From contig NZ_OY762934.1 in assembly GCF_963667045.1 (NCBI RefSeq), positions 4,532,501-4,596,500 on the forward strand: a stretch of 64,000 nt of DNA, in the 5' to 3' direction. This DNA is from an uncultured Cohaesibacter sp. Its GTDB lineage: Bacteria; Pseudomonadota; Alphaproteobacteria; Rhizobiales; Cohaesibacteraceae. A program made the translations under genes and the position numbers. Position 1 is the stretch's first letter. Each line of letters begins with the position of its first letter. This document shows, one piece after another, positions 1,560 through 13,375 of the stretch. The notes under the pieces were generated by a model. That model did not search any database, was not told the DNA's origin, and saw only the letters and a program-made list of their open reading frames with translations.

Positions 1560-2354
1560 CTACTGCAGTTCGTTGATGTAGCGATGGCTGCGGGTGGTTG
1601 CCCTATGTTTGGTGAACAGCACTGGGGTGCCGGTCTGATCATAGGCCACTTCCTCGATCGTCAAGACGGCACTAGGGGCTTCCAGCTCCAGATGGAGAAG
1701 GTCGTCCTCATTGGCCAGTTCTGCCGCGATCTTTTCTCGCACGGCCGAGATGCGAATGTCGTAATGCTCAAGCAGATACAGATAGAGCAGGGCCGGGACG
1801 TCTTCCGCATTGCGCGGGAAATCGGCCAGTTGGCCCGAAGGCATCGTTACGGTTTCCACCATCACGGGCCTGTCGTGAACGCTGCGCACACGCGACAGGC
1901 GCATCACCGGGGTGGCTGGTTCGACGCGCAGATTTTCTGATTCGATATCTGTCGCCTCTCCGAAAACCAGCGACAGGTTCCTGGCCTGCGAATGCTGCAG
2001 AGCCCCGTCCAGTCCGTGCAGACGGAAATACTGGAAGAAGAAGCGAAGGCTGTGCTGGGGGGTCCGACCAGTGACCACAGTGCCGGTCTTGCGACGACGG
2101 CTGAGCATGCCTTCATTGGTCAGTTCGCTGAGGGCACGGCGAATGGTTCCGACTGACACGCGCAGCGTCCGCGCCAGTTCGACTTCGCTGGGCAAGACGG
2201 TGCCTGCGGGCCATTTTCCCATCATGATAGCTTCAAAGATTTGTCTCTTAACCACGAGGTAGAGGGGCTGGGCCCTGTCAGCCATGGACGGTGAAAAATC
2301 ATCTTCCTGCGTTGCCTTGGGGAACAGGGCCATCAGTGTCTCGTCATCTTTCAT
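1560..2354 (-). CDS. GntR-family transcriptional regulator with UTRA ligand domain
   Basis: A 264-residue HutC-subfamily regulator. Residues about 30-95 form the GntR winged helix (PLYLVVKRQIFEAIMMGKW, then LPSEVELARTLRVSVGTIRRALSELTNEG in two pieces). Residues about 110-255 match a UTRA effector domain (VMRLSRVRSVHDRPVMVETVT, then a C-terminal ..TGTPVLFTKHRATTRSHRY..). It is divergent from the M20/ABC/M20/M24 operon starting at 2442, and a 21-bp inverted repeat sits in the 87-bp gap, so it is the probable local regulator of that operon. The ligand is unknown; UTRA proteins bind small molecules such as sugars, amino-acid derivatives or fatty acids. The start at 2354 gives a normal family length. 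Confidence 0.9.
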   Translation of the reverse strand: MKDDETLMALFPKATQEDDFSPSMADRAQPLYLVVKRQIFEAIMMGKWPAGTVLPSEVELARTLRVSVGTIRRALSELTNEGMLSRRRKTGTVVTGRTPQHSLRFFFQYFRLHGLDGALQHSQARNLSLVFGEATDIESENLRVEPATPVMRLSRVRSVHDRPVMVETVTMPSGQLADFPRNAEDVPALLYLYLLEHYDIRISAVREKIAAELANEDDLLHLELEAPSAVLTIEEVAYDQTGTPVLFTKHRATTRSHRYINELQ

Positions 2355-2385
2355 ATTGACAATCTATCTCTTTTGCTCGCATATA

Positions 2386-2406
2386 TTTCTATATAGTTTA
2401 TAGAAA
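2386..2406. promoter_or_regulatory. Inverted-repeat operator candidate for the GntR regulator
   Basis: TTTCTATA-N5-TATAGAAA is a perfect 8-bp inverted repeat centred at 2396, in the AT-rich gap between the divergent regulator and the M20/ABC operon. Symmetry and position fit a GntR-type operator controlling both directions. The assignment is inference. Confidence 0.6.
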
Positions 2407-2441
2407 ACATTCGTCGTCGTCCACTCTCCAGAGGCAATAAG

Positions 2442-3758
2442 GTGTCAGACAAAAGTTACTCTCTACGCTCGCATCAAGCTTTGCAACCGGCATTTGAAGC
2501 CATTGAGAAGTCTGTCAATTCTGCAGAGGACGCGCTGGCGCGGATGATTGCTGTCGATACCACTTTCCCACCGGGAGAGGGCTATGGGGCCTTTGCGGAT
2601 CTGGCGCAGTCGCTGTTTGAAACGCTGTCTTTCGGTTTCGAGCGTGTGTCAGTGCCCGAAGGTCTCTGGAAGACCCGTTCAGGCAAGGCGTCTGGCGAAC
2701 GGATCAATCTTATTGGTGAGCGTGTAACGGGCAAGCCGGTCTGTGGGCTCTATTTCCACGTCGATACGGTGCCCGTTGCACCGGGCTGGACCTTCGAGCC
2801 GTTTGCCATGACCAAGATGGACGATCGGCTCTATGGACTGGGTGCTGCGGACATGAAGGGTACCATGGCTGCCTGCTATCTGGCGCTCAAGGTAGCAAAA
2901 GAGCATGCTGTTCCGCTCGCCTATGACCCCATGCTGCTGTTTTGCACCGATGAGGAATCCGGCCTCTATCCGGGCATCCGCTATCTGGCGGAACAGGGCT
3001 ATCTCAAGGGCCATATTCTCAATTTCAACGGCTCTGCGGCACCGCGCGTCTGGGCCGGGTGCTTTGGCGTCTTTGCGCTCACGCTGACCATTCGCGGTGT
3101 GCCCGTGCATGCGGGCGACGGCAACCGCAGCGGGGCAGGGGCCAATGCCATCGAAGCCAGCATTCCGCTGTTGAATGCGCTCATGGCGCTCAAGGAAAAG
3201 GTCGGCGAACGTGCCTCGAAACTGGCACCAGCTCCCGGTGCGAGCGGACCCTTGCGGCCCCAGCTCTATATTGCCGCCGCCAACGGCGGGACGGCGCCGG
3301 GGCAGGTGCCTGGGCGTTTCGAGTTGCTGATCGGGCGACGTTATGCGCCCGAAGAATCCTACGCGGACGCCCGCGCCGAGATCGAGGCATGCATCCATGC
3401 TGCACTCGATGATCTCGACATGATTACCTATTGCATCGAGCAGACTTCCCATCTGACCCCGACAGCAGACCCGGACGGTGCCCACTGGCCACGTTGGCAG
3501 AAGGCGCTTAGCGCAGGGTTTGGCTATCGCAAGAAGGACTTTGCGAAATGGGGCGCGGCCAGCTGTTCGGACTTCGGATATGTCCAGCAGGCCGGTGTGA
3601 TGCAGGAAATCCTGTTGGGAGGGCTGGGGAGGCCTTCCAGCAATGTCCACGGCCCGGACGAACATACGACTTCGCCAGATATCATCGCGCTTGCCAAGAG
3701 TGTGCTGTCCTATCTGGCCGCAGACTTCGAACCGGATATGATTCCGGATCAAAAATAA
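2442..3758 (+). CDS. M20-family amidohydrolase/peptidase-like protein (first of operon)
   Basis: A 438-residue protein of the ArgE/DapE/ACY1/CPG2 (M20) superfamily, which hydrolyses amide bonds with a two-zinc site. Visible site residues are His106 and Asp108 (FHVDTV), Asp137 (AADMKG), Glu171 and Glu172 (TDEESG) and His403 (VHGPDE). The place where the family has Glu-Pro (metal ligand) reads FNGS, so that ligand appears to be Asn196 or missing. The start is GTG at 2442, preceded by AGAGG. It is the first gene of an operon with a Dpp-type importer, a second M20 gene and an M24 gene, so it probably processes an imported peptide-like compound. The substrate is unknown. Confidence 0.85.
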   Translation: MSDKSYSLRSHQALQPAFEAIEKSVNSAEDALARMIAVDTTFPPGEGYGAFADLAQSLFETLSFGFERVSVPEGLWKTRSGKASGERINLIGERVTGKPVCGLYFHVDTVPVAPGWTFEPFAMTKMDDRLYGLGAADMKGTMAACYLALKVAKEHAVPLAYDPMLLFCTDEESGLYPGIRYLAEQGYLKGHILNFNGSAAPRVWAGCFGVFALTLTIRGVPVHAGDGNRSGAGANAIEASIPLLNALMALKEKVGERASKLAPAPGASGPLRPQLYIAAANGGTAPGQVPGRFELLIGRRYAPEESYADARAEIEACIHAALDDLDMITYCIEQTSHLTPTADPDGAHWPRWQKALSAGFGYRKKDFAKWGAASCSDFGYVQQAGVMQEILLGGLGRPSSNVHGPDEHTTSPDIIALAKSVLSYLAADFEPDMIPDQK

Positions 3759-3796
3759 GAATATCAGCCAAAAATCACTTCAAGAAGGAACCACCA

Positions 3797-5356
3797 ATGC
3801 TTGAAACAACCCGCAGACGTTTTCTCCTCGGAACTGCCTTTGTGGCAGCTTCGGCGACCCTTTCTCTTTCCATGCCCGCCTTCGCGCAGGCTCCGGTAAA
3901 AGGCGGCACCCTGCGTGTGGCCATCGATCAGGCTACCAGCGTGCTCAACCCGCTGCTTGTCCGCGTCAACCCGGAATACATGCTTTCCGAATTGCTCTAT
4001 AGCGGCCTCACGCGCCTCAATGTGGACATGAGTCCGGAAGCCGATCTGGCTGAAAGCTGGAGCGCCAACGAAGCGCTGACCGAATGGACCTTCACTCTGC
4101 GCAAGGGCGTCAAGTTCCACGACGGCTCGGCGCTGACCGCTGCCGACGTGGTCGCTTCCTACAAGGCCATTCTCAATCCGGATACCGCCTCTCCCGGCCG
4201 CAAGAACGTCGGCCCGATCGAGGATGTGGTTGCCAAGGATGACCTCACTGTCGTCTTCAAGCTGACCGGCCCCTATGCCGACATGCCGGTAGCAACCGCC
4301 TACATGAACGCCAAGATCGTTCCGGCAGCCATCATCGAGAGCGGCCTCGACAAGCTGTCCAGCGAAGCTGTTGGCACCGGCCCGTTCAAGCTGGTTTCCT
4401 TCGAGCCGGACCGTCAGGTCGTGGTTGAACGCAACCCGGACTATTATGATCCGGAACGCCCTTACCTCGACAAGGTCGTGCTGAATGTCTATCCGGATTC
4501 CACCGCAGAGAGCTCCGCGCTCATTGCTGGCGAGATCGACCTGATCTCTACCCTTGATCCGACCGAGTATATGCGCCTTGACGGCACCGACGGTATCGAC
4601 CTGCAGCGCGTCGCTTCCGGCCAGTTCTGCAACGTCAACATGCGGTGCGACGTCAAGCCGTTTGATGATCCGCGCGTTCGCCAGGCCCTTGCCCTTACCG
4701 TGGATCGTGACGCCATGATCCAGTTCGTCACCGAAGGCTTCGGCACCGCAGGCAACGACACCCCGATCAACAACGCCTATCGTTTCTATTCCGAACAGCC
4801 GATGCGCAAGCCGGACATCGAAAAGGCAAAGCAGCTGCTGGCGGACGCCGGTTATGCCGATGGCATCAAGATCACGCTGGTGGCTTCCGAAAAGCCGGCC
4901 CTGCGCACGCAGCTCGCCGTTGCCCTGCGCGAAATGGCCAAACCGGCTGGCTTCGACATAGAAGTCCAGACGATGCCACACGCCACCTATCTGGATCAGG
5001 TCTGGAAGAAGGGCAATTTCTACGTTGGCTTCTACAACATGCAGCCGACCGAAGACGGTATCTTCAAATTGCTCTACACCTCCGATGCTGCCTGGAATGA
5101 AACGCGCTGGGATAATTCGGACTTTGACAAGGCGGTCAATGCTGCCCGTGTCACGGCCGACGAAGCAACCCGCGCCAAGCTTTATGCGGAAGCCCAAAAG
5201 CTTCAGTATGAGGGTGTTCCATCTATCATCCCGACCTTCTTTGATGTGCTGGGTGCCAAACGGACCTGGGTTGCCGCCTATGATATCCATCCGCGCGCTT
5301 CCGTGTTCCGTTTTGACCATACATGGTTGACGGACAAGGCTCCGACGCGGTCATAA
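3797..5356 (+). CDS. ABC transporter substrate-binding protein, family 5 (DppA/OppA type)
   Basis: A 519-residue periplasmic binding protein. The N-terminus LETTRRRFLLG is a twin-arginine (Tat) signal, followed by a hydrophobic stretch and a cleavage-like AFA-QA site, so it is probably exported folded. The mature part has the family-5 signature (GGTLRVAIDQ, LLYSGLTRLN, LAESW, EWTFTLRKGVKFHDGSALTAADV in pieces, GTGPFKL, then RQALALTVDR). Members bind di- and oligopeptides, but also nickel, heme or opines. The start ATG at 3797 follows AAGGAACC. Upstream bases in this frame are a shadow of the M20 gene. It is followed by a hairpin-rich 98-base gap and then the two permeases. Confidence 0.92.
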   Translation: MLETTRRRFLLGTAFVAASATLSLSMPAFAQAPVKGGTLRVAIDQATSVLNPLLVRVNPEYMLSELLYSGLTRLNVDMSPEADLAESWSANEALTEWTFTLRKGVKFHDGSALTAADVVASYKAILNPDTASPGRKNVGPIEDVVAKDDLTVVFKLTGPYADMPVATAYMNAKIVPAAIIESGLDKLSSEAVGTGPFKLVSFEPDRQVVVERNPDYYDPERPYLDKVVLNVYPDSTAESSALIAGEIDLISTLDPTEYMRLDGTDGIDLQRVASGQFCNVNMRCDVKPFDDPRVRQALALTVDRDAMIQFVTEGFGTAGNDTPINNAYRFYSEQPMRKPDIEKAKQLLADAGYADGIKITLVASEKPALRTQLAVALREMAKPAGFDIEVQTMPHATYLDQVWKKGNFYVGFYNMQPTEDGIFKLLYTSDAAWNETRWDNSDFDKAVNAARVTADEATRAKLYAEAQKLQYEGVPSIIPTFFDVLGAKRTWVAAYDIHPRASVFRFDHTWLTDKAPTRS

Positions 5357-5362
5357 TTCCCC

Positions 5363-5425
5363 GCAGCATGTTCATGCTGCCGACGGCCTGACGGTTCCAA
5401 GTCCCCTCTCTTGGGGCTGTCAGGC
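5363..5425 (+). repeat. Intercistronic hairpins between binding protein and permease genes
   Basis: GCAGCATG-TT-CATGCTGC (5363-5380) is followed by GCCTGAC (5386-5392) pairing with GTCAGGC (5419-5425) around a CCCC/GGGG inner stem. No T-run follows. Such hairpins often stabilise the upstream binding-protein mRNA so that it is made in excess of the membrane subunits. That role is inferred. Confidence 0.55.
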
Positions 5426-5454
5426 TGCCGGGAACAAACAACAGGAACAAAACA

Positions 5455-6402
5455 TTGTCTGCCAGCTATCTCACAAAGCGGGTGGCCCTGATTTTCTATA
5501 CGCTCCTGATCGTGTCGCTGATCGTTTTCGCCATGACCCAGATTCTGCCTGCCGATGCGGCGGTGATGATGTTGGGCGAGAACGCGACCGAGGAAGCGCT
5601 TGCCGCGCTTCGGGAGCAGATGGGGCTGAACAATCCGGTCTGGACGCAGTATCTGCACTGGATCGCCGGTGTCTTTCAGGGTGATTTCGGAACCTCGCTG
5701 CGCACCGGTCTGTCAGTCGGGCCCGTCATGATCGAGGCTCTCAGCCGCTCGTTGCTTCTCGCTCTCTTTTCCATCTGCTTGATGCTGTTCATCGCCGTGC
5801 CGCTGGGCATCCTCGCTGCGGTGCGTCGTGGCAAGATTGTCGACATGGCTGTCAGCCTCATTTCCTATGTTGGCGTGTCTCTGCCCGAGTTCGTCACGGC
5901 CACGCTGGCGCTGTTGTTCCTGGCCGACCGCTGGAAACTGCTGCCGCCGACGGGCTATGTGCCGCTCACCGAGAATTTCTGGGACGGTGTCGCCCATCTG
6001 ATCATGCCCGCGGCCGTCATTTCCATCATTCTGGTGGCCCATGTCTCGCGCATGGTGCGATCGGAAATGGTTGATGTGCTGCATACGGATTATATCCGGG
6101 CGGCGCGTCTCAAGGGCCTTTCTTCTCGTCAGGTGCTCTGGGGGCATGCCTTGCGCAATGCGCTGCTGCCCACGATTACCATTGTGGCGCTTGATGTGGG
6201 CTATCTGCTCGGTGGGGTCATTGTGGTGGAAGAGATCTTTGCCATCCCCGGCATCGGCCGCCAGCTGATCATTGCCATTCAGGCCCGCGACCTGCCGTCC
6301 ATTCAGGCGGGCGTGCTGATCATGGCCGCGACCTACTGTCTGGTCAATTTCATTGCCGACATCCTCTATTCCCTGCTCGACAAGAGGATCCAGTATGACT
6401 GA
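5455..6402 (+). CDS. ABC transporter permease (DppB/OppB type)
   Basis: A 315-residue inner-membrane permease of the dipeptide/oligopeptide importer family. It has an N-terminal membrane helix (RVALIFYTLLIVSLIVFAM), a periplasmic loop, and five further helices. The BPD_transp_1 coupling motif EMVDVLHTDYIRAARLKGLS and the GGVIVVEEIFAIPGIGR segment are typical of DppB. The start is TTG at 5455 with CAGGAAC upstream, which places the first residues (SASYLTKR) correctly for the family. The end overlaps the next permease by 8 bases, so the two are translationally coupled. Confidence 0.93.
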   Translation: MSASYLTKRVALIFYTLLIVSLIVFAMTQILPADAAVMMLGENATEEALAALREQMGLNNPVWTQYLHWIAGVFQGDFGTSLRTGLSVGPVMIEALSRSLLLALFSICLMLFIAVPLGILAAVRRGKIVDMAVSLISYVGVSLPEFVTATLALLFLADRWKLLPPTGYVPLTENFWDGVAHLIMPAAVISIILVAHVSRMVRSEMVDVLHTDYIRAARLKGLSSRQVLWGHALRNALLPTITIVALDVGYLLGGVIVVEEIFAIPGIGRQLIIAIQARDLPSIQAGVLIMAATYCLVNFIADILYSLLDKRIQYD

Positions 6403-7219
6403 CTTTCTCAAACGTCTGATGCGATCCCCGCAAGGGGCGCTTGGCAGCGGCATCGTCTTTCTGGTGCTCGTTGCCGTGGCTTTCGGGCCCTATCTGGCTC
6501 CCCATGATCCTGAAGCCATGTCCATTCTGGCGCGCTTCAAGGGCCCCAGTGCAGACTTCCTGCTGGGAACAGATCAATATGGCCGGGACATTTTCTCGCG
6601 GCTGATGATTGGTGCCCGCTCCACGGTCATCATGGCGGTGGTGGCCACTTTGATCGGCACCGTAGTCGGTGCACTGGTCGGGGTGACGTCGGCCTTTCTG
6701 GGCGGACGGGCCGACGAGGTCATCATGCGCACCATCGATGCGGTGATGTCGATCCCGAGCCTGTTGTTTGCGCTGATCATCGTCAATCTCCTGGGATCGT
6801 CCGACTTCAACGCGCTGCTGGCCGTTTCCATCGCCTTCGCACCCGGCATGGCCCGCATCAGCCGAGCGGTCGCCCTGTCGGCCCGCAAGCAGGATTTTGT
6901 CAGCGCCGCCATTGCACGCGGAGAAAAGCCCAACTTTATTGTCCTGTCGGAAATGCTGCCCAACACCGTGGCGCCGATCATCGTTGAAATGACCATTCGC
7001 GTGTCCTTCGCCATCATGCTGTTCGCAACGCTTAGCTTTCTTGGTCTGGGGGCGCAGCCGCCGTCTGAAGAATGGGGGCTGATGGTCTCCGAGGCGCGCC
7101 GCTATATGCATATTTCCAGCTGGATTCTGGTCTGGCCAAGCCTTGCCATTGCACTGGTCGCTATCGGGTTCAACCTGCTTGGCGATGGGCTGCGCGATGT
7201 GCTCAATCCGAAAACCTGA
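6395..7219 (+). CDS. ABC transporter permease (DppC/OppC type)
   Basis: The second inner-membrane permease, 274 residues. It carries the DppC-type N-terminus (LMRSPQGALGSGIVF..), the PHDP motif after helix 1, GTDQYGRDIFSRL, and the coupling loop QDFVSAAIARGEKP. It ends with GDGLRDVLNPK, the usual DppC ending. The start ATG at 6395 has AGAGGA at 6383-6388 and lies inside the last codons of the DppB-type gene. It forms the membrane channel with the preceding permease. Confidence 0.93.
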   Translation: MTDFLKRLMRSPQGALGSGIVFLVLVAVAFGPYLAPHDPEAMSILARFKGPSADFLLGTDQYGRDIFSRLMIGARSTVIMAVVATLIGTVVGALVGVTSAFLGGRADEVIMRTIDAVMSIPSLLFALIIVNLLGSSDFNALLAVSIAFAPGMARISRAVALSARKQDFVSAAIARGEKPNFIVLSEMLPNTVAPIIVEMTIRVSFAIMLFATLSFLGLGAQPPSEEWGLMVSEARRYMHISSWILVWPSLAIALVAIGFNLLGDGLRDVLNPKT

Positions 7220-7229
7220 GGAGACCGGA

Positions 7230-8870
7230 ATGACCAGTGATACAGCAGCTCCGGTGCTCTCGGTCGAAGGCTACAGCCTCGACTATCTGACCGCCAAAGG
7301 GCCGTTTCATGCGCTCAAGGATATCAGCCTGAGCATTGGTGCAGGCGAGATCGTCGGGCTCGTGGGCGAAAGCGGTTCGGGCAAGTCGTCGCTTGCCTGG
7401 TCGATCATGCGCTATCTGCCGGGCAACGCCCATGAGGTTTCCGGTGCCATACGCTTTGATGGCTCGGATCTGATGGCGCGTTCGAACAATGAGATCGAGG
7501 CCATTCGCGGCAAACGCATTTCGATGGTCTTTCAGGATCCGGCAACGTCTCTCAATCCGACCCTGTCGCTTGGTCGCCAGATCAGCGAAGTGCTGATCCG
7601 TCATCAGGGGCTGAGCAAGAAACAGGCCTGGGCCGAAGCGGAAGCGCGGCTTGCCCATGTGGGCCTGAAGACCCCGGCGCAGATGATGCATCGCTTCCCC
7701 CACGAAGCCTCCGGCGGGGAGAAGCAGCGAGTGGTCATCGCCACCGCCTTTGCCTGCAATCCGGAACTGATCATCTTTGACGAGCCAACCACGGCGCTCG
7801 ATGTCATCACCTCGCGGCAGATCCTAGAGCTGTTCCAGTCGCTGCAGCAGGAAACCGGCGTTGCCTCACTCTATATCTCCCATGATCTGGCACTTGTGGC
7901 CACAACTGCTCACAGGGTGTCGGTGATCAACAGGGGCGAAATCGTCGAGCAGGGTCAGGTGGATGAGATTTTCTCCCGACCGCAGGATGCTTATACCAAG
8001 AAGCTCATTGCCGCGGTGCCAGATCCATCGGTCCGCCTTGCTGGCAATGAACCCGACTATGCGGCCAAGCCATTGGCCGAGGTCGAGAATGTCAGTGTCA
8101 TCTATGGCCGTAAGCCATTTTTCGGGCGCTTCTCCAAAAAGGCTGGCAACCATGTGACCGGCAACCGGGCCGTCAATCTTGCCATCCAGCCGGGAGAGAT
8201 TCTCGGGATCGTCGGGGAAAGTGGCTCGGGCAAGTCTACGCTGGCCAAGGCCCTGACGGGGCTCAATAAATTCGAAGGCGAGATCCGCTTCGAAGGGCGC
8301 CCGATCCATAGCATTGCCGACATGAGTGATTCCTATCGCCGGGATGTGCAGATCATCTTTCAGCACCCGGACGCCTCGCTCAATCCACGCAAGACCATCG
8401 GTGATATCCTCTCGCGCCCCTATCGGCTCTATACGGAATATTCCGGCAAGGCGATGCGGGACGAGATTTCCCGTCTTCTCGAACAGGTCAAGCTGCCCGC
8501 CTCCTATGCGGCCCGCTATCCGCACCAGCTATCGGGTGGTGAGAAGCAGCGTGTGGCGATTGCCCGTGCCTTTGCCTCTCAGCCCAAGCTGGTCATCTGC
8601 GACGAGATCACCTCGGCGCTTGATGTGTCGGTACAGGCTTCGGTGATCGAGTTGCTGATGGAGCTGCGCGAGGAGTTCGGCACCGCCTATCTGTTCATCA
8701 CCCACGACCTCAACCTCGTGCGCCAGATTGCTCACCGGATCGCCGTCATGTATCGCGGCGACCTTATCGAAATTGCCCCCACCCGGGATATCACCGCCCC
8801 TCAGAGAGCCGCCTATACCCGGCAACTTCTGGAGGCTGTCCCCGTGCCGGTTGCCCGCAGCGCTCCTTGA
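7230..8870 (+). CDS. Fused dipeptide-type ABC transporter ATPase (DppD-DppF fusion)
   Basis: A 546-residue protein with two complete nucleotide-binding domains of the dipeptide/nickel class. Each has Walker A (GESGSGKSS and GESGSGKST), Q-loop (VFQDPATSLNP and IFQHPDASLNP), signature (SGGEKQR twice), Walker B (LIIFDEPTT and LVICDEITS) and switch His (SHD, THD). Many organisms encode these as separate dppD and dppF genes, and fused forms are known. The start ATG at 7230 has GAGGAG at 7218-7223. It energises uptake through the two permeases just upstream. Confidence 0.93.
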   Translation: MTSDTAAPVLSVEGYSLDYLTAKGPFHALKDISLSIGAGEIVGLVGESGSGKSSLAWSIMRYLPGNAHEVSGAIRFDGSDLMARSNNEIEAIRGKRISMVFQDPATSLNPTLSLGRQISEVLIRHQGLSKKQAWAEAEARLAHVGLKTPAQMMHRFPHEASGGEKQRVVIATAFACNPELIIFDEPTTALDVITSRQILELFQSLQQETGVASLYISHDLALVATTAHRVSVINRGEIVEQGQVDEIFSRPQDAYTKKLIAAVPDPSVRLAGNEPDYAAKPLAEVENVSVIYGRKPFFGRFSKKAGNHVTGNRAVNLAIQPGEILGIVGESGSGKSTLAKALTGLNKFEGEIRFEGRPIHSIADMSDSYRRDVQIIFQHPDASLNPRKTIGDILSRPYRLYTEYSGKAMRDEISRLLEQVKLPASYAARYPHQLSGGEKQRVAIARAFASQPKLVICDEITSALDVSVQASVIELLMELREEFGTAYLFITHDLNLVRQIAHRIAVMYRGDLIEIAPTRDITAPQRAAYTRQLLEAVPVPVARSAP

Positions 8871-8921
8871 GGGGAGCAACGGATCTAACCAAGGTGAAGC
8901 GAGATTATAGAAGGACATGAA

Positions 8922-10142
8922 ATGGATCCCAGGGAACTGATCGGAAAAGTCGACGAAAAGGCCTGCCTAGATTTTCTGGCAAGCATGGTTCGTCACAAGA
9001 GTTACTCGGAAACCGAGGGCGAGGTTGCACTCGCCCGCTATATGGCCGAAGAGCTCGAGAAGCTTGGCCTCACCAGCGACCTTCAGCCGTTCGATGAAGG
9101 CCGTCGCTACAATGCGATCGGCACATGGAAGGGCGAAGGCGGCGGCAAGAGCCTGTTGTTCAATGGCCATCTCGATACCAATCCCGTCACGGAAGGCTGG
9201 ACCGTCGATCCATGGGGCGGCCTGATCGATGACAAGTTCATCTACGGCATCGGTGTCTCCAACATGAAGTCGGGCGACGCGGCCTATTTCTGCGCCGTCA
9301 AGACCCTGATCGATGCTGGCGTCAAGCTCAAGGGCGATGTGATCCTGACCTTTGTGGTCGGCGAATTGCAGGGCGGTCCGGGCACCGTGGCAGCCATCCG
9401 GGCTGGCTACAAGGCGGACTATTTCGTCAACAGCGAGCCGAGCGATCTGCAGGCCGTGACGATGCATGCCGAAGCGCTGACCTTCACCATCGAGCTCACG
9501 GGCAACACCCGCCATTTGTCCAAGCGCGAGGAAGCCGTTGACGCCATCGAAGCCGCCTGTGACATCATTCCGCGGATTAACGCGATGACCTTCTCTGGGG
9601 CTCTCAGCGATGAGCACAGGGGTATCAACCGCGGTCATGTCGGCGTCGTGCATGGGGCGCTGGGCAAGGATCTTGTCGAATGGCGTCCGCCGCAGGTGGC
9701 CGACTTCGCCCGCCTCAAGGGCACGGCACGCTATGCTCCTGGCCAGACTCGCGAAGGCGTTCTGGCTGACCTTCGAGCCGAGCTGGACGGGCTGGAAAGC
9801 CGCTTCCCCGGCCTCAAGGCAGTCATTCTGCCCGAAAGCGCCGAGGGTCGCCTGACCATGCCTGCCTTCGAGGTGTCCAAGGATTCCCGGATCGTCAAGT
9901 CGATCAACAAGGCCTATGAGACCGTGCGCGGCGAGCCACAGCCAACCGGTGCGATCACGCCGACCGGCTTCTACGGCAGCGATGCTGGCCATCTCTATCA
10001 TGAGCTGGGCATGGAAGGCATCGTCTGTGGTCCGGGCGGTCGCTACAACACCATGCCGGATGAGCGGGTGGACATTGCCGACTTCCTCGACATGATCCGC
10101 ATTTACATGCTGACCATTCTTGATATTTGCGAGGTTGCCTGA
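8922..10142 (+). CDS. M20-family protein with degenerate metal site (second of operon)
   Basis: A 406-residue M20/ArgE-DapE-like protein. The fold signature is clear (FNGHLDTNP, IYGIGVSNMKSG, LTFVVGELQGGPG, NSEPSDLQ, YNTMPDERVD). The family's five-ligand di-metal centre is not intact. His83 and Asp85 remain, but the bridging Asp is Asn114 (SNMKSG), the paired EE is Glu148-Leu149, Glu172 remains, and the C-terminal His is Asn376. It is therefore either a non-metallo or mono-metal enzyme, or a non-catalytic binding protein. The start ATG at 8922 has AGAAGGA at 8909. It ends one base before the M24 gene, in the same operon. Confidence 0.82.
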   Translation: MDPRELIGKVDEKACLDFLASMVRHKSYSETEGEVALARYMAEELEKLGLTSDLQPFDEGRRYNAIGTWKGEGGGKSLLFNGHLDTNPVTEGWTVDPWGGLIDDKFIYGIGVSNMKSGDAAYFCAVKTLIDAGVKLKGDVILTFVVGELQGGPGTVAAIRAGYKADYFVNSEPSDLQAVTMHAEALTFTIELTGNTRHLSKREEAVDAIEAACDIIPRINAMTFSGALSDEHRGINRGHVGVVHGALGKDLVEWRPPQVADFARLKGTARYAPGQTREGVLADLRAELDGLESRFPGLKAVILPESAEGRLTMPAFEVSKDSRIVKSINKAYETVRGEPQPTGAITPTGFYGSDAGHLYHELGMEGIVCGPGGRYNTMPDERVDIADFLDMIRIYMLTILDICEVA

Positions 10143-10143
10143 G

Positions 10144-11271
10144 ATGGCTTTCCCGCGTGAGGAATATGACTGGCGTCTGGGCAAGGCCCGGGCGCTGATG
10201 GACGCCCATGGCGTGGACATCATGCTGGCCGACTGTGCCGAGCTGATGACATGGCTGACGGGCTATGCACCCTCCGAGACGATGTACCGGGTTGTTCTGT
10301 TGCCCAAAGATGGCGAGCCGGTGTATGTGCTCAGAAGGCTCGATGAGGATCCCTGTCGCCGCAACAATCTGGTGGCGCGGATCGTGACCTTCGAGGATCA
10401 TGAAGAGCCACAGCTGGCAATCGCTGGCGTCCTGCGGCTTCTGGGGATGGAAAAGGCGCGCATTGGCGTTGATTTCAACTCCTACAGCTTCACCGTCCGT
10501 AGCTATCGCCGCCTGATGGAGTTGTTGCCGCAGGCGGTGTTCGTCGACTTGCCCGATGCTTCCGACGCCCTTCGCTGGATCAAGTCCGGGCGCGAGGTGG
10601 AGCAGCTGCGCGCCGCTGCCGCCATCGCCGACAAGGCCATGGGAGCGATTACCCATGACATCCGGGCTGGCATGTCACCGCGCGATGCTGCCGCCATTGC
10701 CGCCCGCACCTATCTTCTGGAAGGGGCGGACACTGGCGAGGTTGGCCCTATCGTTCGCTCCAGCGGCGGTCATGAGTTTCTCCATGGTGGCCTTGGCAAT
10801 GATCGCCTTCAGGATGGCGACATCCTGCATGTGGAGCTGATCCCCAAGATTGCTCATTATTGCGCCCGTCTGATGCGCCCGATTTTCATCGGCCAGCCAT
10901 CGCGGGAAACGGATGAGGCGGCCCGGATGCTGATTTCGCTTCAGGATCAGCAGATTACCGCGATGAAAAGCGGTGCGGTCGCGTCTCAGGTCGACGCCAT
11001 CCTGCGGCAGGGAGTGCTCAAGTCTGGTCTGCGCGACTCCTTTCCGAATGTCACCGCCTATACGTTGGGGATCTACAACCGGACCCCACGGAGCAGCGAC
11101 TTCTCCCGGGTCTTGCTGCCAACATCGGACTGGTCACTTGAAACCGGCATGGTGTTCCACCTCTACGCCTCCGCTCAGGGGCTAGGATTCTCCGAAACGG
11201 TGGTGGTGACCGAAGACGGTGGCAGACGGCTGACGCAGTTTGAACGAAGGCTTTTCAGCAGCCCGGCCTGA
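10144..11271 (+). CDS. M24 pita-bread family protein, creatinase/ectoine-hydrolase-like (metal ligands absent)
   Basis: A 375-residue protein with the creatinase N-domain (residues 1-130) and a pita-bread C-domain. An automatic annotation would probably call it Xaa-Pro aminopeptidase. The metal ligands of that enzyme are missing: the first Asp position reads HVEL (Glu231), the second lies in HYCARLMRP, the GHG.G histidine region reads LGIYNRTP, and EPG reads LYAS. His214 (FLHGG, near the creatinase active His) and Glu351 (SETVVVTEDGG) remain. That pattern resembles metal-free creatinase and ectoine hydrolase, so hydrolysis of a small C-N bond other than a peptide is plausible. The start ATG at 10144 directly follows the upstream stop. 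It ends the operon before a strong terminator. Confidence 0.8.
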   Translation: MAFPREEYDWRLGKARALMDAHGVDIMLADCAELMTWLTGYAPSETMYRVVLLPKDGEPVYVLRRLDEDPCRRNNLVARIVTFEDHEEPQLAIAGVLRLLGMEKARIGVDFNSYSFTVRSYRRLMELLPQAVFVDLPDASDALRWIKSGREVEQLRAAAAIADKAMGAITHDIRAGMSPRDAAAIAARTYLLEGADTGEVGPIVRSSGGHEFLHGGLGNDRLQDGDILHVELIPKIAHYCARLMRPIFIGQPSRETDEAARMLISLQDQQITAMKSGAVASQVDAILRQGVLKSGLRDSFPNVTAYTLGIYNRTPRSSDFSRVLLPTSDWSLETGMVFHLYASAQGLGFSETVVVTEDGGRRLTQFERRLFSSPA

Positions 11272-11349: not shown

Positions 11350-12381
11350 TCAGAGGGACAGCAGGGCGATGGCCGATGCGCCGAGGGCGCCGAGGAACAG
11401 GATGGACAGGGTGCCCGTTGCCAGAACCCGGCCGCTTGATGCAAAGACCGACTTGACGTCGACCATCAGGCCTAGACCAGCCATGGAGAGGATGGTCAGG
11501 AGGGTGGTGGTGTTCTTGATCGGAGGCATGGCGGCTTCGGGAATGGCGCCGAGGGACTGCAGGGCGATCATCAGGAAGAAGCCGATGATGAACCATGGCA
11601 CCAACTGACTGAGCCTGAGGCTCTTGCCGGTGCTTTTCTCAGCCTCGATCTCGGCCTTTCTGCTGGCTCGAAAGCCCAGGATAAGAATGACCGGCCCCAG
11701 CATCAAGACGCGCATCAGCTTCACCAGCGTGCCGAAATGGACGCTGATGGTGCTGACCGGGGCCGTGGCTGCCAGCACCTGCGGGACGGCGTAGACAGTC
11801 ATTCCGGCAAAGATGCCGAAGCGGTGCGGGTCGATGGCAAAGCTGTTGGCAAAGGCGGGCAGCGCCAGCACGACGATGATGCCGAGGGTGGCGGAAAAGG
11901 CGATGGCTGAGGCGATGTCCTCGGAATCTGCGTCAATTACCGGGGCGATGGCAACGATGGCCGAGTTGCCACAGATCGAGTTGCCACAGGCGACCAGCAT
12001 CGCCTGTTTTTCCGGCAGCCCCAAAAGGCGGCCGATGGTGTAGCTGGCGGTGATGGCAAGCGCCACGATGATGATGACCACCAGTAGCAGGAGCGGGCCG
12101 AGGGTCTTGATGATGGTCAGGCTGACCGAGGCGCCCAGCAGCACGATAGCCAGTTCGAGCAGATATTTTGCGGAGAAGTTGACGCCCTTGCGAAACACCG
12201 GGTTCATCCCCAGGATCGAATGCACAGCAGTGCCCAGAATGATCGAAAATACGAGGGCATCCATGAAGCAGTGGCCGGTCAGCTGGACCTCAAGCCACTC
12301 TGCTCCATAGGCGAGGATGGTGATGAGTCCACAGAGCAGGAAGCCGGGTAGAACTGATTGAATATATTGCCAGATACGCAT
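11350..12381 (-). CDS. YeiH-family (UPF0324) putative sulfate exporter
   Basis: A 343-residue multi-spanning membrane protein with about ten hydrophobic helices. It carries the family landmarks ILGTAVHS (helix 2-3), NFSAKYLLELAIVLLGA, a CGNSICGNSAIVAIAPVI motif around residue 130, and FGIFAGMTVYAVPQVLAA. Family members are described as putative sulfate or small-anion exporters, and experimental support is thin. It is divergent from a LysR regulator at 12488, the same arrangement as yeiH with a LysR gene in other bacteria. It ends at an SLL tail 10 bases past the terminator of the convergent operon. Confidence 0.88.
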   Translation of the reverse strand: MRIWQYIQSVLPGFLLCGLITILAYGAEWLEVQLTGHCFMDALVFSIILGTAVHSILGMNPVFRKGVNFSAKYLLELAIVLLGASVSLTIIKTLGPLLLLVVIIIVALAITASYTIGRLLGLPEKQAMLVACGNSICGNSAIVAIAPVIDADSEDIASAIAFSATLGIIVVLALPAFANSFAIDPHRFGIFAGMTVYAVPQVLAATAPVSTISVHFGTLVKLMRVLMLGPVILILGFRASRKAEIEAEKSTGKSLRLSQLVPWFIIGFFLMIALQSLGAIPEAAMPPIKNTTTLLTILSMAGLGLMVDVKSVFASSGRVLATGTLSILFLGALGASAIALLSL

Positions 12382-12487: not shown

Positions 12488-13375
12488 ATGACCCTTGAAC
12501 AACTGACGATCTTTGTGGCCGTGGCCGAGCGCCAACATATCACCCGAGCTGCGGAGGCGATCGGCCTGACGCCGTCAGCGGTCAGCGCGTCGATCAAGGC
12601 ACTGGAAGGCTTTCACAATGTGAAGTTGTTTGACCGGGTCGGGCGTGGCATTGAGTTGACCGAGGCGGGAGGCCTGTTCCTCAGGGAAGCCAGAGCGACC
12701 CTTGCCCGGGCCAATGCGGCGGCTCTGGTGCTGAGCGAGCTTGGCGGATTGAAGCGGGGCGTGTTGCATGTCCATGCCAGCCAGACCATCGCCAGCTACT
12801 GGCTGCCTTCGCACATGGTGCATTTTCATGATCTCTATCCGGATATCAGTCTGCGTCTGACGGTTGGCAACACGCAGACCGTGACGCGTGCGGTGGAGGA
12901 GGGACAGGCGGAAATCGGCTTTGTCGAGGGGGATGTCGATGCGCCGCTGTTGCGGTCGGACAAGCTGATTGACGACGAAATCGCCATTGTCATTGCACCG
13001 GATCATCCCTTGGCAAGCGCCTCCGCGTCTGACTATCTGCCCCTCATCCGCAAAACCTACTGGATCATGCGCGAACAAGGGTCCGGCACCCGCTCCACCT
13101 TCGAGTCGGCGATGAAACGCCTCGGGGTGGCGCCGGAAAGCCTGAAGCTGGCGCTGGAATTCCCCAGCAACGAGGCGGTGCTGTCGGCTCTGGTGGGCAG
13201 CGCCTACGCGGGTGCGGTTTCCCGCATAGCGGCTCGGCCATTGGTGGCAACAGGCGAGATCACCTTTGCCGACATTCCGTTTCCGCCAAGAGATTTCATG
13301 GCACTTAGCCACCGCGCGCGCACATTGAGCCCGGCTGCCCGCGAGTTTCTGCGACTGTGTCACGAAACGGGCTGA
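12488..13375 (+). CDS. LysR-family transcriptional regulator
   Basis: A 295-residue LysR regulator. The N-terminal helix-turn-helix is TLEQLTIFVAVAERQHITRAAEAIGLTPSAVS.. (residues 2-60), followed by the linker helix and a periplasmic-binding-like effector domain (residues about 90-290) with the VGNTQTV and IVIAPDHPLA segments. The N-terminal order resembles YeiE/CysB-like members adjacent to yeiH genes. The start ATG at 12488 gives the classic MTLEQL start. It is divergent from the YeiH-type exporter, which it probably controls through the T-N11-A site between them. It is convergent with the amino-acid ABC operon. Confidence 0.9.
   Translation: MTLEQLTIFVAVAERQHITRAAEAIGLTPSAVSASIKALEGFHNVKLFDRVGRGIELTEAGGLFLREARATLARANAAALVLSELGGLKRGVLHVHASQTIASYWLPSHMVHFHDLYPDISLRLTVGNTQTVTRAVEEGQAEIGFVEGDVDAPLLRSDKLIDDEIAIVIAPDHPLASASASDYLPLIRKTYWIMREQGSGTRSTFESAMKRLGVAPESLKLALEFPSNEAVLSALVGSAYAGAVSRIAARPLVATGEITFADIPFPPRDFMALSHRARTLSPAAREFLRLCHETG

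What the first reader, a model, noticed from the sequence alone, without database searches (positions are those of the whole stretch)
2442..11271. Peptide-type importer operon with three metallopeptidase-fold proteins whose metal sites look remodelled
The sequence shows one operon: an M20 protein, a Tat-exported family-5 binding protein, two permeases, a fused double ATPase, a second M20 protein and an M24 protein, with a divergent GntR/UTRA gene. Family knowledge says M20 and M24 peptidases use di-metal centres. By eye, M20-1 lacks one ligand (FNGS where EP is expected), M20-2 has D->N, E->L and H->N, and M24 has lost four of five. Three changed enzymes in one operon suggests a dedicated pathway for a peptide-like or small amide compound that is not normal peptide use. 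This is the best undescribed-system candidate in the window.
Basis: partly seen in the sequence, partly recalled or inferred. Interest (0 to 1): 0.75.

Follow-up and report, generated by a model that had tools for sequence, protein, structure and literature searches.

The report
Conserved importer operon with remodelled hydrolases
A gene cluster kept nearly unchanged in many soil, plant-associated and marine bacteria appears to import a small unknown compound and break it down with three enzymes built on protein-cutting folds whose metal sites have been rebuilt for other chemistry.

Summary
In a Cohaesibacter genome, window 1560-11271 carries a divergent GntR/UTRA gene and the operon M20-1, SBP5, two permeases, double ATPase, M20-2, M24. 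The ligand changes are real and fixed: M20-1 E->N in 74 of 74 rows; M20-2 D->N, E->L, H->N in 94 of 94; M24 four of five prolidase ligands changed. The set recurs: all six genes upstream of M20-2 in 62 of 69 named loci, M24 next in 49 of 78. In one draw of 397 genomes all 11 with M20-1 also have M20-2.

Two of the three sites match solved non-peptidase enzymes. M24 has the ectoine hydrolase (EutD/DoeA) pattern. M20-2 has the pattern of 5-nitroanthranilate aminohydrolase (5NAA-A), groups with it in two small trees and shares its Arg289; it keeps one metal site and loses the other. I know no precedent for M20-1's E->N.

Best reading: a dedicated uptake-and-catabolism operon for a small peptide-like, nitrogen-rich compound, with M20-2 a one-metal and M24 a metal-free C-N hydrolase. 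Substrate unknown. Not decay and probably not ordinary peptide use. New variant of known kinds.

The parts
1560..2354 (-). GntR/UTRA (HutC-like) regulator, divergent from the operon
   Evidence: Pfam GntR and UTRA; homologue on the divergent side in 62 of 69 named loci
2442..3758 (+). M20-1: M20-fold hydrolase with N196-G197 in place of the usual Glu(Asp)-Pro metal-ligand motif; other ligands kept
   Evidence: Pfam M20, alignment to CPG2, 74 of 74 rows
3797..5356 (+). family-5 solute-binding protein, Tat-like signal
   Evidence: Pfam SBP_bac_5; 68 of 69 named loci
5455..6402 (+). DppB/OppB-type permease
   Evidence: Pfam BPD_transp_1 and its N-terminal domain; 68 of 69
6395..7219 (+). DppC/OppC-type permease, overlapping the previous gene
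   Evidence: Pfam BPD_transp_1, OppC_N; 68 of 69
7230..8870 (+). fused double ABC ATPase (DppD-DppF type)
   Evidence: two ABC_tran stretches; 68 of 69
8922..10142 (+). M20-2: M20-fold hydrolase with one metal site lost (E->L149, H->N376) and bridging D->N114; signature enzyme of the operon
   Evidence: model mean pLDDT 85.3
10144..11271 (+). M24-fold hydrolase with the EutD/DoeA active-site pattern (H214, E231, Y306, H339, E351)
   Evidence: model mean pLDDT 91.1, best PDB match DoeA 6twk

Best explanation
A GntR/UTRA-controlled uptake and catabolic operon for one class of small, peptide-like, nitrogen-rich compounds. The SBP5 importer brings the compound in (inferred from family). In the cytosol three hydrolases on peptidase folds cut C-N bonds other than an ordinary peptide bond. 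M20-2 binds a single divalent metal with H83, N114 and E172 and uses E148 as base and R255 to hold the substrate or intermediate, as in 5-nitroanthranilate aminohydrolase (residue pattern shown; metal count and reaction inferred). M24 works without metal by the ectoine-hydrolase mechanism through E231, H214, Y306, H339 and E351 (residue pattern and fold shown; reaction inferred). M20-1 is an amidase or deacylase whose second metal site is weakened or reshaped by N196 (change shown; effect inferred). M20-2 and the importer are the core, M20-1 comes next, M24 is an accessory step exchanged or lost in some lineages.
For: Set and order conserved: all six upstream genes in 62 of 69 named loci, M24 directly after in 49 of 78 (tables), in Alpha-, Beta- and Gammaproteobacteria. 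M20-1 in 11 of 397 order genomes, all 11 among the 17 with M20-2. Fixed ligand changes. M20-2 loses exactly the pair of ligands of one CPG2 site (E176, H385; site assignment recalled) and shares with 5NAA-A the N, the I/L, the missing last His and the Arg mutated in the R289A intermediate-bound structure 5k8p; 5NAA-A branches with it at 96/89 and, with a second 5NAA-A-like row, at 93/91. PDB titles show 5NAA-A with Mn and with Zn. M24: best PDB relative by profile and by fold is DoeA, 4.6e-51 and TM 0.89, and five active-site residues are identical to DoeA. Purifying selection: pN/pS 0.05 to 0.15 for the three enzymes in two congener comparisons.
Against: No substrate, activity or metal content is known. 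M20-2's best profile and Foldseek match is a canonical DapE-type enzyme, 7uoi (108.7 bits against 77.2 for 5NAA-A; rank 1 against rank 3), and TM-scores do not favour 5NAA-A. The trees hold 33 and 22 rows, mostly from one genome, with long branches flagged; 93 is below the 95 mark. The Arg match rests on the HMMER alignment; MAFFT put R255 two residues away from R289. 5NAA-A lacks M20-2's H198. M24 scores 113 bits against a DoeA cut-off of 613. The order-genome searches scored only the 4 best first-look candidates per genome.
Confidence: 0.58

Rival explanations
1. M20-2, M20-1 or both are catalytically dead pseudoenzymes that act as scaffold, sensor or partner of the other M20 or of the M24 protein.
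For: Ligand loss is the usual mark of pseudopeptidases (review PMC11266112, passages). M20-1 keeps one metal site and M20-2 the other, which could suit a mixed complex.
Against: General base, one complete set of metal-2 ligands, lid His and Arg are all invariant in M20-2, and 5NAA-A with the same losses is an active enzyme (PDB titles; passages). M20-2 stands without M20-1 in 6 of 17 order genomes and in a Variovorax plasmid, so an obligate M20-1/M20-2 pair is unlikely.
Confidence: 0.17
2. Ordinary peptide or N-acyl amino acid utilisation: importer plus hydrolases that happen to tolerate altered ligands.
For: Importer and folds are those of peptide systems; M20-1 keeps four of five ligands and could still be a normal amidase.
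Against: Three fixed departures in one operon; M24 matches a non-peptidase; the 9 classical M20 paralogues of the genome keep all ligands.
Confidence: 0.13
3. Salvage of D-amino-acid dipeptides or cell-wall fragments.
For: In a Pantoea dispersa plasmid the operon runs on into a gene annotated ddpX, D-Ala-D-Ala dipeptidase, 14 bases after M24.
Against: No ddpX match in any other locus held (tblastn), and only one Pantoea plasmid was opened.
Confidence: 0.07
4. Use of a chelator- or opine-like amino-dicarboxylate: the M20-2/M24 core feeds a lyase and an epimerase.
For: In loci L050 and L052 M20-2 and M24 lie beside an ArgH-type lyase (336.7 bits, over the argH cut-off), an MmgE/PrpD protein, an M28 and a second M20 whose own ligands are altered. 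That IDS epimerase and EDDS lyase belong to these two families is recalled.
Against: Two loci of one genus only; the lyase may be a true ArgH by its score; no such genes in the window operon.
Confidence: 0.05

Closest known systems
5-nitroanthranilate aminohydrolase (5NAA-A, Bradyrhizobium sp. JS329; PDB 5k8m-5k8p)
   Same: M20 fold; bridging D->N; second Glu of the E-E pair -> I/L; last metal His missing; base Glu and E172-type ligand kept; Arg255/Arg289; sister branch in two small trees
   Different: about 20% identity; 5NAA-A has an insertion after its Glu-Ile and no lid His; its nearest homologue fetched sits beside a tripartite-tricarboxylate-type binding protein by my reading of the ORF, not this importer; substrate of M20-2 unknown
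Ectoine hydrolase EutD/DoeA (PDB 6twj, 6twk, 6yo9)
   Same: M24 fold, five active-site residues identical, best profile and fold match; works in a pair with a deacetylase in a substrate-induced uptake and catabolic operon (PMC8739950, passages)
   Different: 25% identity; 113 bits against a cut-off of 613; D220 position is R242 here and P in DoeA; no recognisable ectoine genes beside it; ectoine systems in the passages use a TRAP importer and EnuR
DapE/ArgE family deacylases (TIGR01910) and M20 peptidases
   Same: fold, domain order, nearest canonical relatives
   Different: both M20 proteins score below the TIGR01910 cut-off (144.3 and 156.3 against 217.6) and depart from the di-metal ligand set
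Dpp/Opp-type ABC importers
   Same: all subunits present
   Different: no match over the cut-off of a named substrate class among the 11 NCBIfam models listed for the SBP (best NikA-type, 164.4 against 600)

Membership tests
M20 di-metal peptidase/deacylase | Pfam M20 and dimerisation domains | tested here: met
   both M20 proteins over cut-off
M20 di-metal peptidase/deacylase | five di-metal ligands H, D, E, E/D, H | tested here: not met
   M20-1 lacks one, M20-2 has three changed
5NAA-A-like mononuclear M20 hydrolase | ligand pattern H, N, E-I/L, E, no last His | tested here: met
5NAA-A-like mononuclear M20 hydrolase | Arg289 equivalent | tested here: inconclusive
   R255 aligned with R289 in HMMER, invariant; two residues off in MAFFT
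5NAA-A-like mononuclear M20 hydrolase | common branch with 5NAA-A | tested here: inconclusive
   96/89, 93/91; few rows, long branches
5NAA-A-like mononuclear M20 hydrolase | one metal per subunit and aminohydrolase activity | not testable with these tools
   needs purified protein
M24 metallopeptidase | ligands D, D, H, E, E | tested here: not met
   E, R, Y, absent, E
Ectoine hydrolase EutD/DoeA | active-site residues H, E, Y, F-H, E | tested here: met
Ectoine hydrolase EutD/DoeA | NCBIfam equivalog cut-off | tested here: not met
   113.2 against 613 and 107.6 against 575; none of 6 matches in the genome over it
Dpp/Opp ABC importer | SBP5, two permeases, two ATPase domains | tested here: met
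HutC-type GntR regulator | GntR plus UTRA domains | tested here: met
   effector not testable

The most novel reading that the evidence does not exclude
The operon is an undescribed pathway in which three peptidase folds have been turned to non-peptidase C-N hydrolysis in three ways: metal-free (M24), one metal in site 2 (M20-2) and a reshaped site with site 1 intact (M20-1). M20-2 founds a family of one-metal aminohydrolases or amidohydrolases that is far wider than the single characterised 5NAA-A, and M20-1 with its invariant Asn-Gly is a new active-site type in M20.
Probability: 0.33. Interest if true: 0.68.

Novelty: new variant of a known kind. Interest (0 to 1): 0.5.

Why it matters
If right, the operon marks a widespread but unidentified nutrient of rhizobia, other Alpha-, Beta- and some Gammaproteobacteria and marine Cohaesibacter. 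It would show that 5NAA-A's one-metal M20 site is not a curiosity of one nitroaromatic pathway but the active site of a large conserved enzyme group. NCBI-style annotation now calls these proteins M20/M25/M40 metallo-hydrolases and Xaa-Pro peptidases, which misleads.

Tried and rejected
Decay of the operon: rejected (low pN/pS, fixed changes). Shifted ligands: rejected for M20-2 and M24; in M20-1 the N lies exactly at the Glu of CPG2. True ectoine degradation: rejected by cut-offs. Anti-phage defence: no PADLOC match for the three enzymes. Obligate M20-1/M20-2 pairing: rejected, M20-2 occurs alone. DdpX as a general part: rejected, no match in the other loci held. Cyanophycin dipeptides: a literature search gave nothing that ties them to this set. 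ORF-based clustering of neighbours was spoiled by shadow ORFs in GC-rich DNA, so gene counts rest on tblastn. A further-gene scan found mostly shadow ORFs. The ranking of M20-2 as the most conserved protein (median 77%) is biased, because loci were chosen by M20-2 similarity (the best 80 of 267).

Full report
What is there. The window lies in a 5.24 Mb single-contig genome whose closest named record in the scan is Cohaesibacter haloalkalitolerans (99% over M20-2). No gene is broken in the window.

Ligands. Against carboxypeptidase G2 (alignment), M20-1 has all usual metal-site residues except the Glu of the Glu-Pro motif, which is Asn-Gly; the eight catalytic or ligand residues checked and the Gly next to N196 are invariant in 74 of 74 rows. 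M20-2 has Asn for the bridging Asp, Leu for the second Glu and Asn for the last His, with the base Glu, the first His-x-Asp and the Glu-Pro Glu kept, in 94 of 94 rows apart from one unreadable X at E148. By recalled CPG2 structure, E176 and H385 belong to one zinc and H112 and E200 to the other, with D141 between them; so M20-2 has lost one whole site and kept the other, whereas M20-1 is damaged only in the site that M20-2 keeps. M24 has E, R, Y, nothing and E where prolidase has D, D, H, E, E.

Bias and controls. The 80 named loci came from a scan with two peptide patterns, one of which contains N114, so that residue cannot be counted as independent there. In the 19 places found by whole-protein search (the window's own copy is one of them) and 4 plasmid loci, all 23 have H83, D85, N114, L149, E172, H198, R255 and N376, and 22 of 23 have E148 with one X. 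Among the other 20 PF01546 proteins of the genome, all 9 classical ones keep all five ligands; 4 carbamoylase-type and 7 M20D-type proteins have the residues I recall for those types; all 20 keep the last His. M20-2 is a sharply separate family: 796 bits for itself and 98.6 for the next protein of the genome, no match at 1e-40 besides the window genome and one other in 398 genomes of the phylum, and in plasmids 62 of 250 records at or above 60% identity against 188 below, the rows seen there being near 23 to 42% (which lists 60 of 250).

Gene set. Of 80 named loci, 69 hold at least 9 kb upstream of M20-2. ATPase, both permeases and SBP are present in 68, M20-1 in 65, the divergent GntR in 62, and all six in 62. 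M24 of at least 40% identity follows directly in 49 of the 78 loci with room, and a more distant one in one more; the 28 without include L135, where a still more distant M24 follows. L099 has M20-2 without any of the others. In the 397 genomes drawn from the order, M20-2 was found in 17, M24 (E below 1e-60) in 18, M20-1 in 11; all 11 with M20-1 and 11 of 18 with M24 are among the 17. Five of those 11 are the window's own genus, window genome included, so the events are fewer than the counts, and only four first-look candidates per genome were scored. Plasmid records with M20-2 include Rhizobium, Neorhizobium, Agrobacterium, Pantoea, Variovorax and others.

Variants. In L056, L057 and L135 M20-2 and the importer lie with two or three EutD-like M24 genes, a hydantoinase/carbamoylase-family amidase (250.2 bits, cut-off 204) and a different GntR. 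In the window genome the side genes of that variant stand alone at about 208-214 kb without M20-2 or importer. In L050 and L052 (one genus) M20-2 and M24 lie beside an ArgH-type lyase, an MmgE/PrpD protein, an M28 and another M20 with E->V and H->S at the same two places that M20-2 has changed (the lyase, MmgE/PrpD and M28 families and the M20 residues were checked in L050 only). In one Pantoea dispersa plasmid ddpX follows M24; it was found in no other locus held. M20-2 is the constant part, partners vary.

What M20-2 works like. A profile of 12 orthologues finds 7uoi (DapE of Enterococcus faecium) first, 108.7 bits, then 5NAA-A, 77.2 bits. Among the PDB rows whose alignments I saw, 5NAA-A is the one with the same three changes. 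Its R289 aligns with invariant R255; 5k8p is the R289A variant with the tetrahedral intermediate bound (title). In a tree of 33 rows 5NAA-A joins M20-2 with 96/89, and in one of 22 rows with a second 5NAA-A-like protein added the join has 93/91. The AlphaFold model (pLDDT 85.3) matches 7uoi, 3pfo and 5NAA-A about equally well, with TM 0.68 to 0.74, so fold alone does not decide; the loop with N376 is the worst-modelled stretch (371-377 below 50). That 5NAA-A removes the amino group by hydrolysis and is thought to use a metal-hydroxide SNAr route is from passages of PMC10306065 and PMC11903332; its primary paper was not held and is recalled. So I predict one labile divalent metal in M20-2.

What M24 works like. 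DoeA is the best PDB relative by single sequence, by profile and by fold (TM 0.89, model pLDDT 91.1). H214, E231, Y306, the F-H pair ending in H339 and E351 are the same in DoeA. DoeA/EutD opens the tetrahydropyrimidine ring of ectoine and acts with a deacetylase (PMC8739950, passages); that it works without metal is recalled. M24 is not DoeA by score, and no ectoine hydrolase over the cut-off is in the genome. So I predict metal-free hydrolysis of an amidine, guanidine or ring C-N bond.

M20-1. Nothing in the calls shows a relative with Asn at this place. It may still bind two metals weakly or one firmly. In the trees it forms its own branch near two long-branched paralogues, which is not reliable.

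Mechanism. Import, then two to three cytosolic C-N cuts, with regulation by a GntR/UTRA protein that probably senses the substrate or an intermediate. The order of steps is unknown. M20-1 seems to depend on M20-2 (never found alone among 397 genomes), but not the reverse, which fits M20-2 acting at the entry point or on the most general group and M20-1 on a product or a sub-class of substrates.

Literature. Searches for the gene set found no paper; other searches concerned the relatives. The library holds only open-licence papers, so absence there is weak evidence.

Verdict. Observation right, interpretation partly right. The system is real, widespread and undescribed as far as I could search, but two of its three unusual sites have solved precedents. 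Novelty: new variant of known kinds. Interest 0.5.

Noticed in passing
G000 contig 1, about 208.5-214 kb (L176:5532-10948): The window genome has a second cluster with a carbamoylase-family amidase, a GntR and two EutD-like M24 genes, 77-92% identical to the side genes of the M20-2 variant operon of another Cohaesibacter (L056), but with no M20-2 or importer.
   Followed up: partly
G000 contig 1, about 419-422 kb (L177:8158-10636): A third pairing of a EutD-like M24 with a carbamoylase-type M20 protein, beside two GntR-like genes.
   Followed up: no
L050:7710-8918: An M20 protein over the DapE/ArgE subfamily cut-off that also has E->V and H->S at the two places lost in M20-2.
   Followed up: no
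L097:11276-11638: A short ORF resembling the N-terminus of M24 right after M20-2, perhaps the remnant of a lost M24 gene.
   Followed up: no
   Followed up: partly
window 11350-12381 (-) and 12488-13375 (+): Next to the operon, a membrane protein that looks like the YeiH family and a divergent LysR-type regulator (by eye); not part of the conserved set.
   Followed up: no
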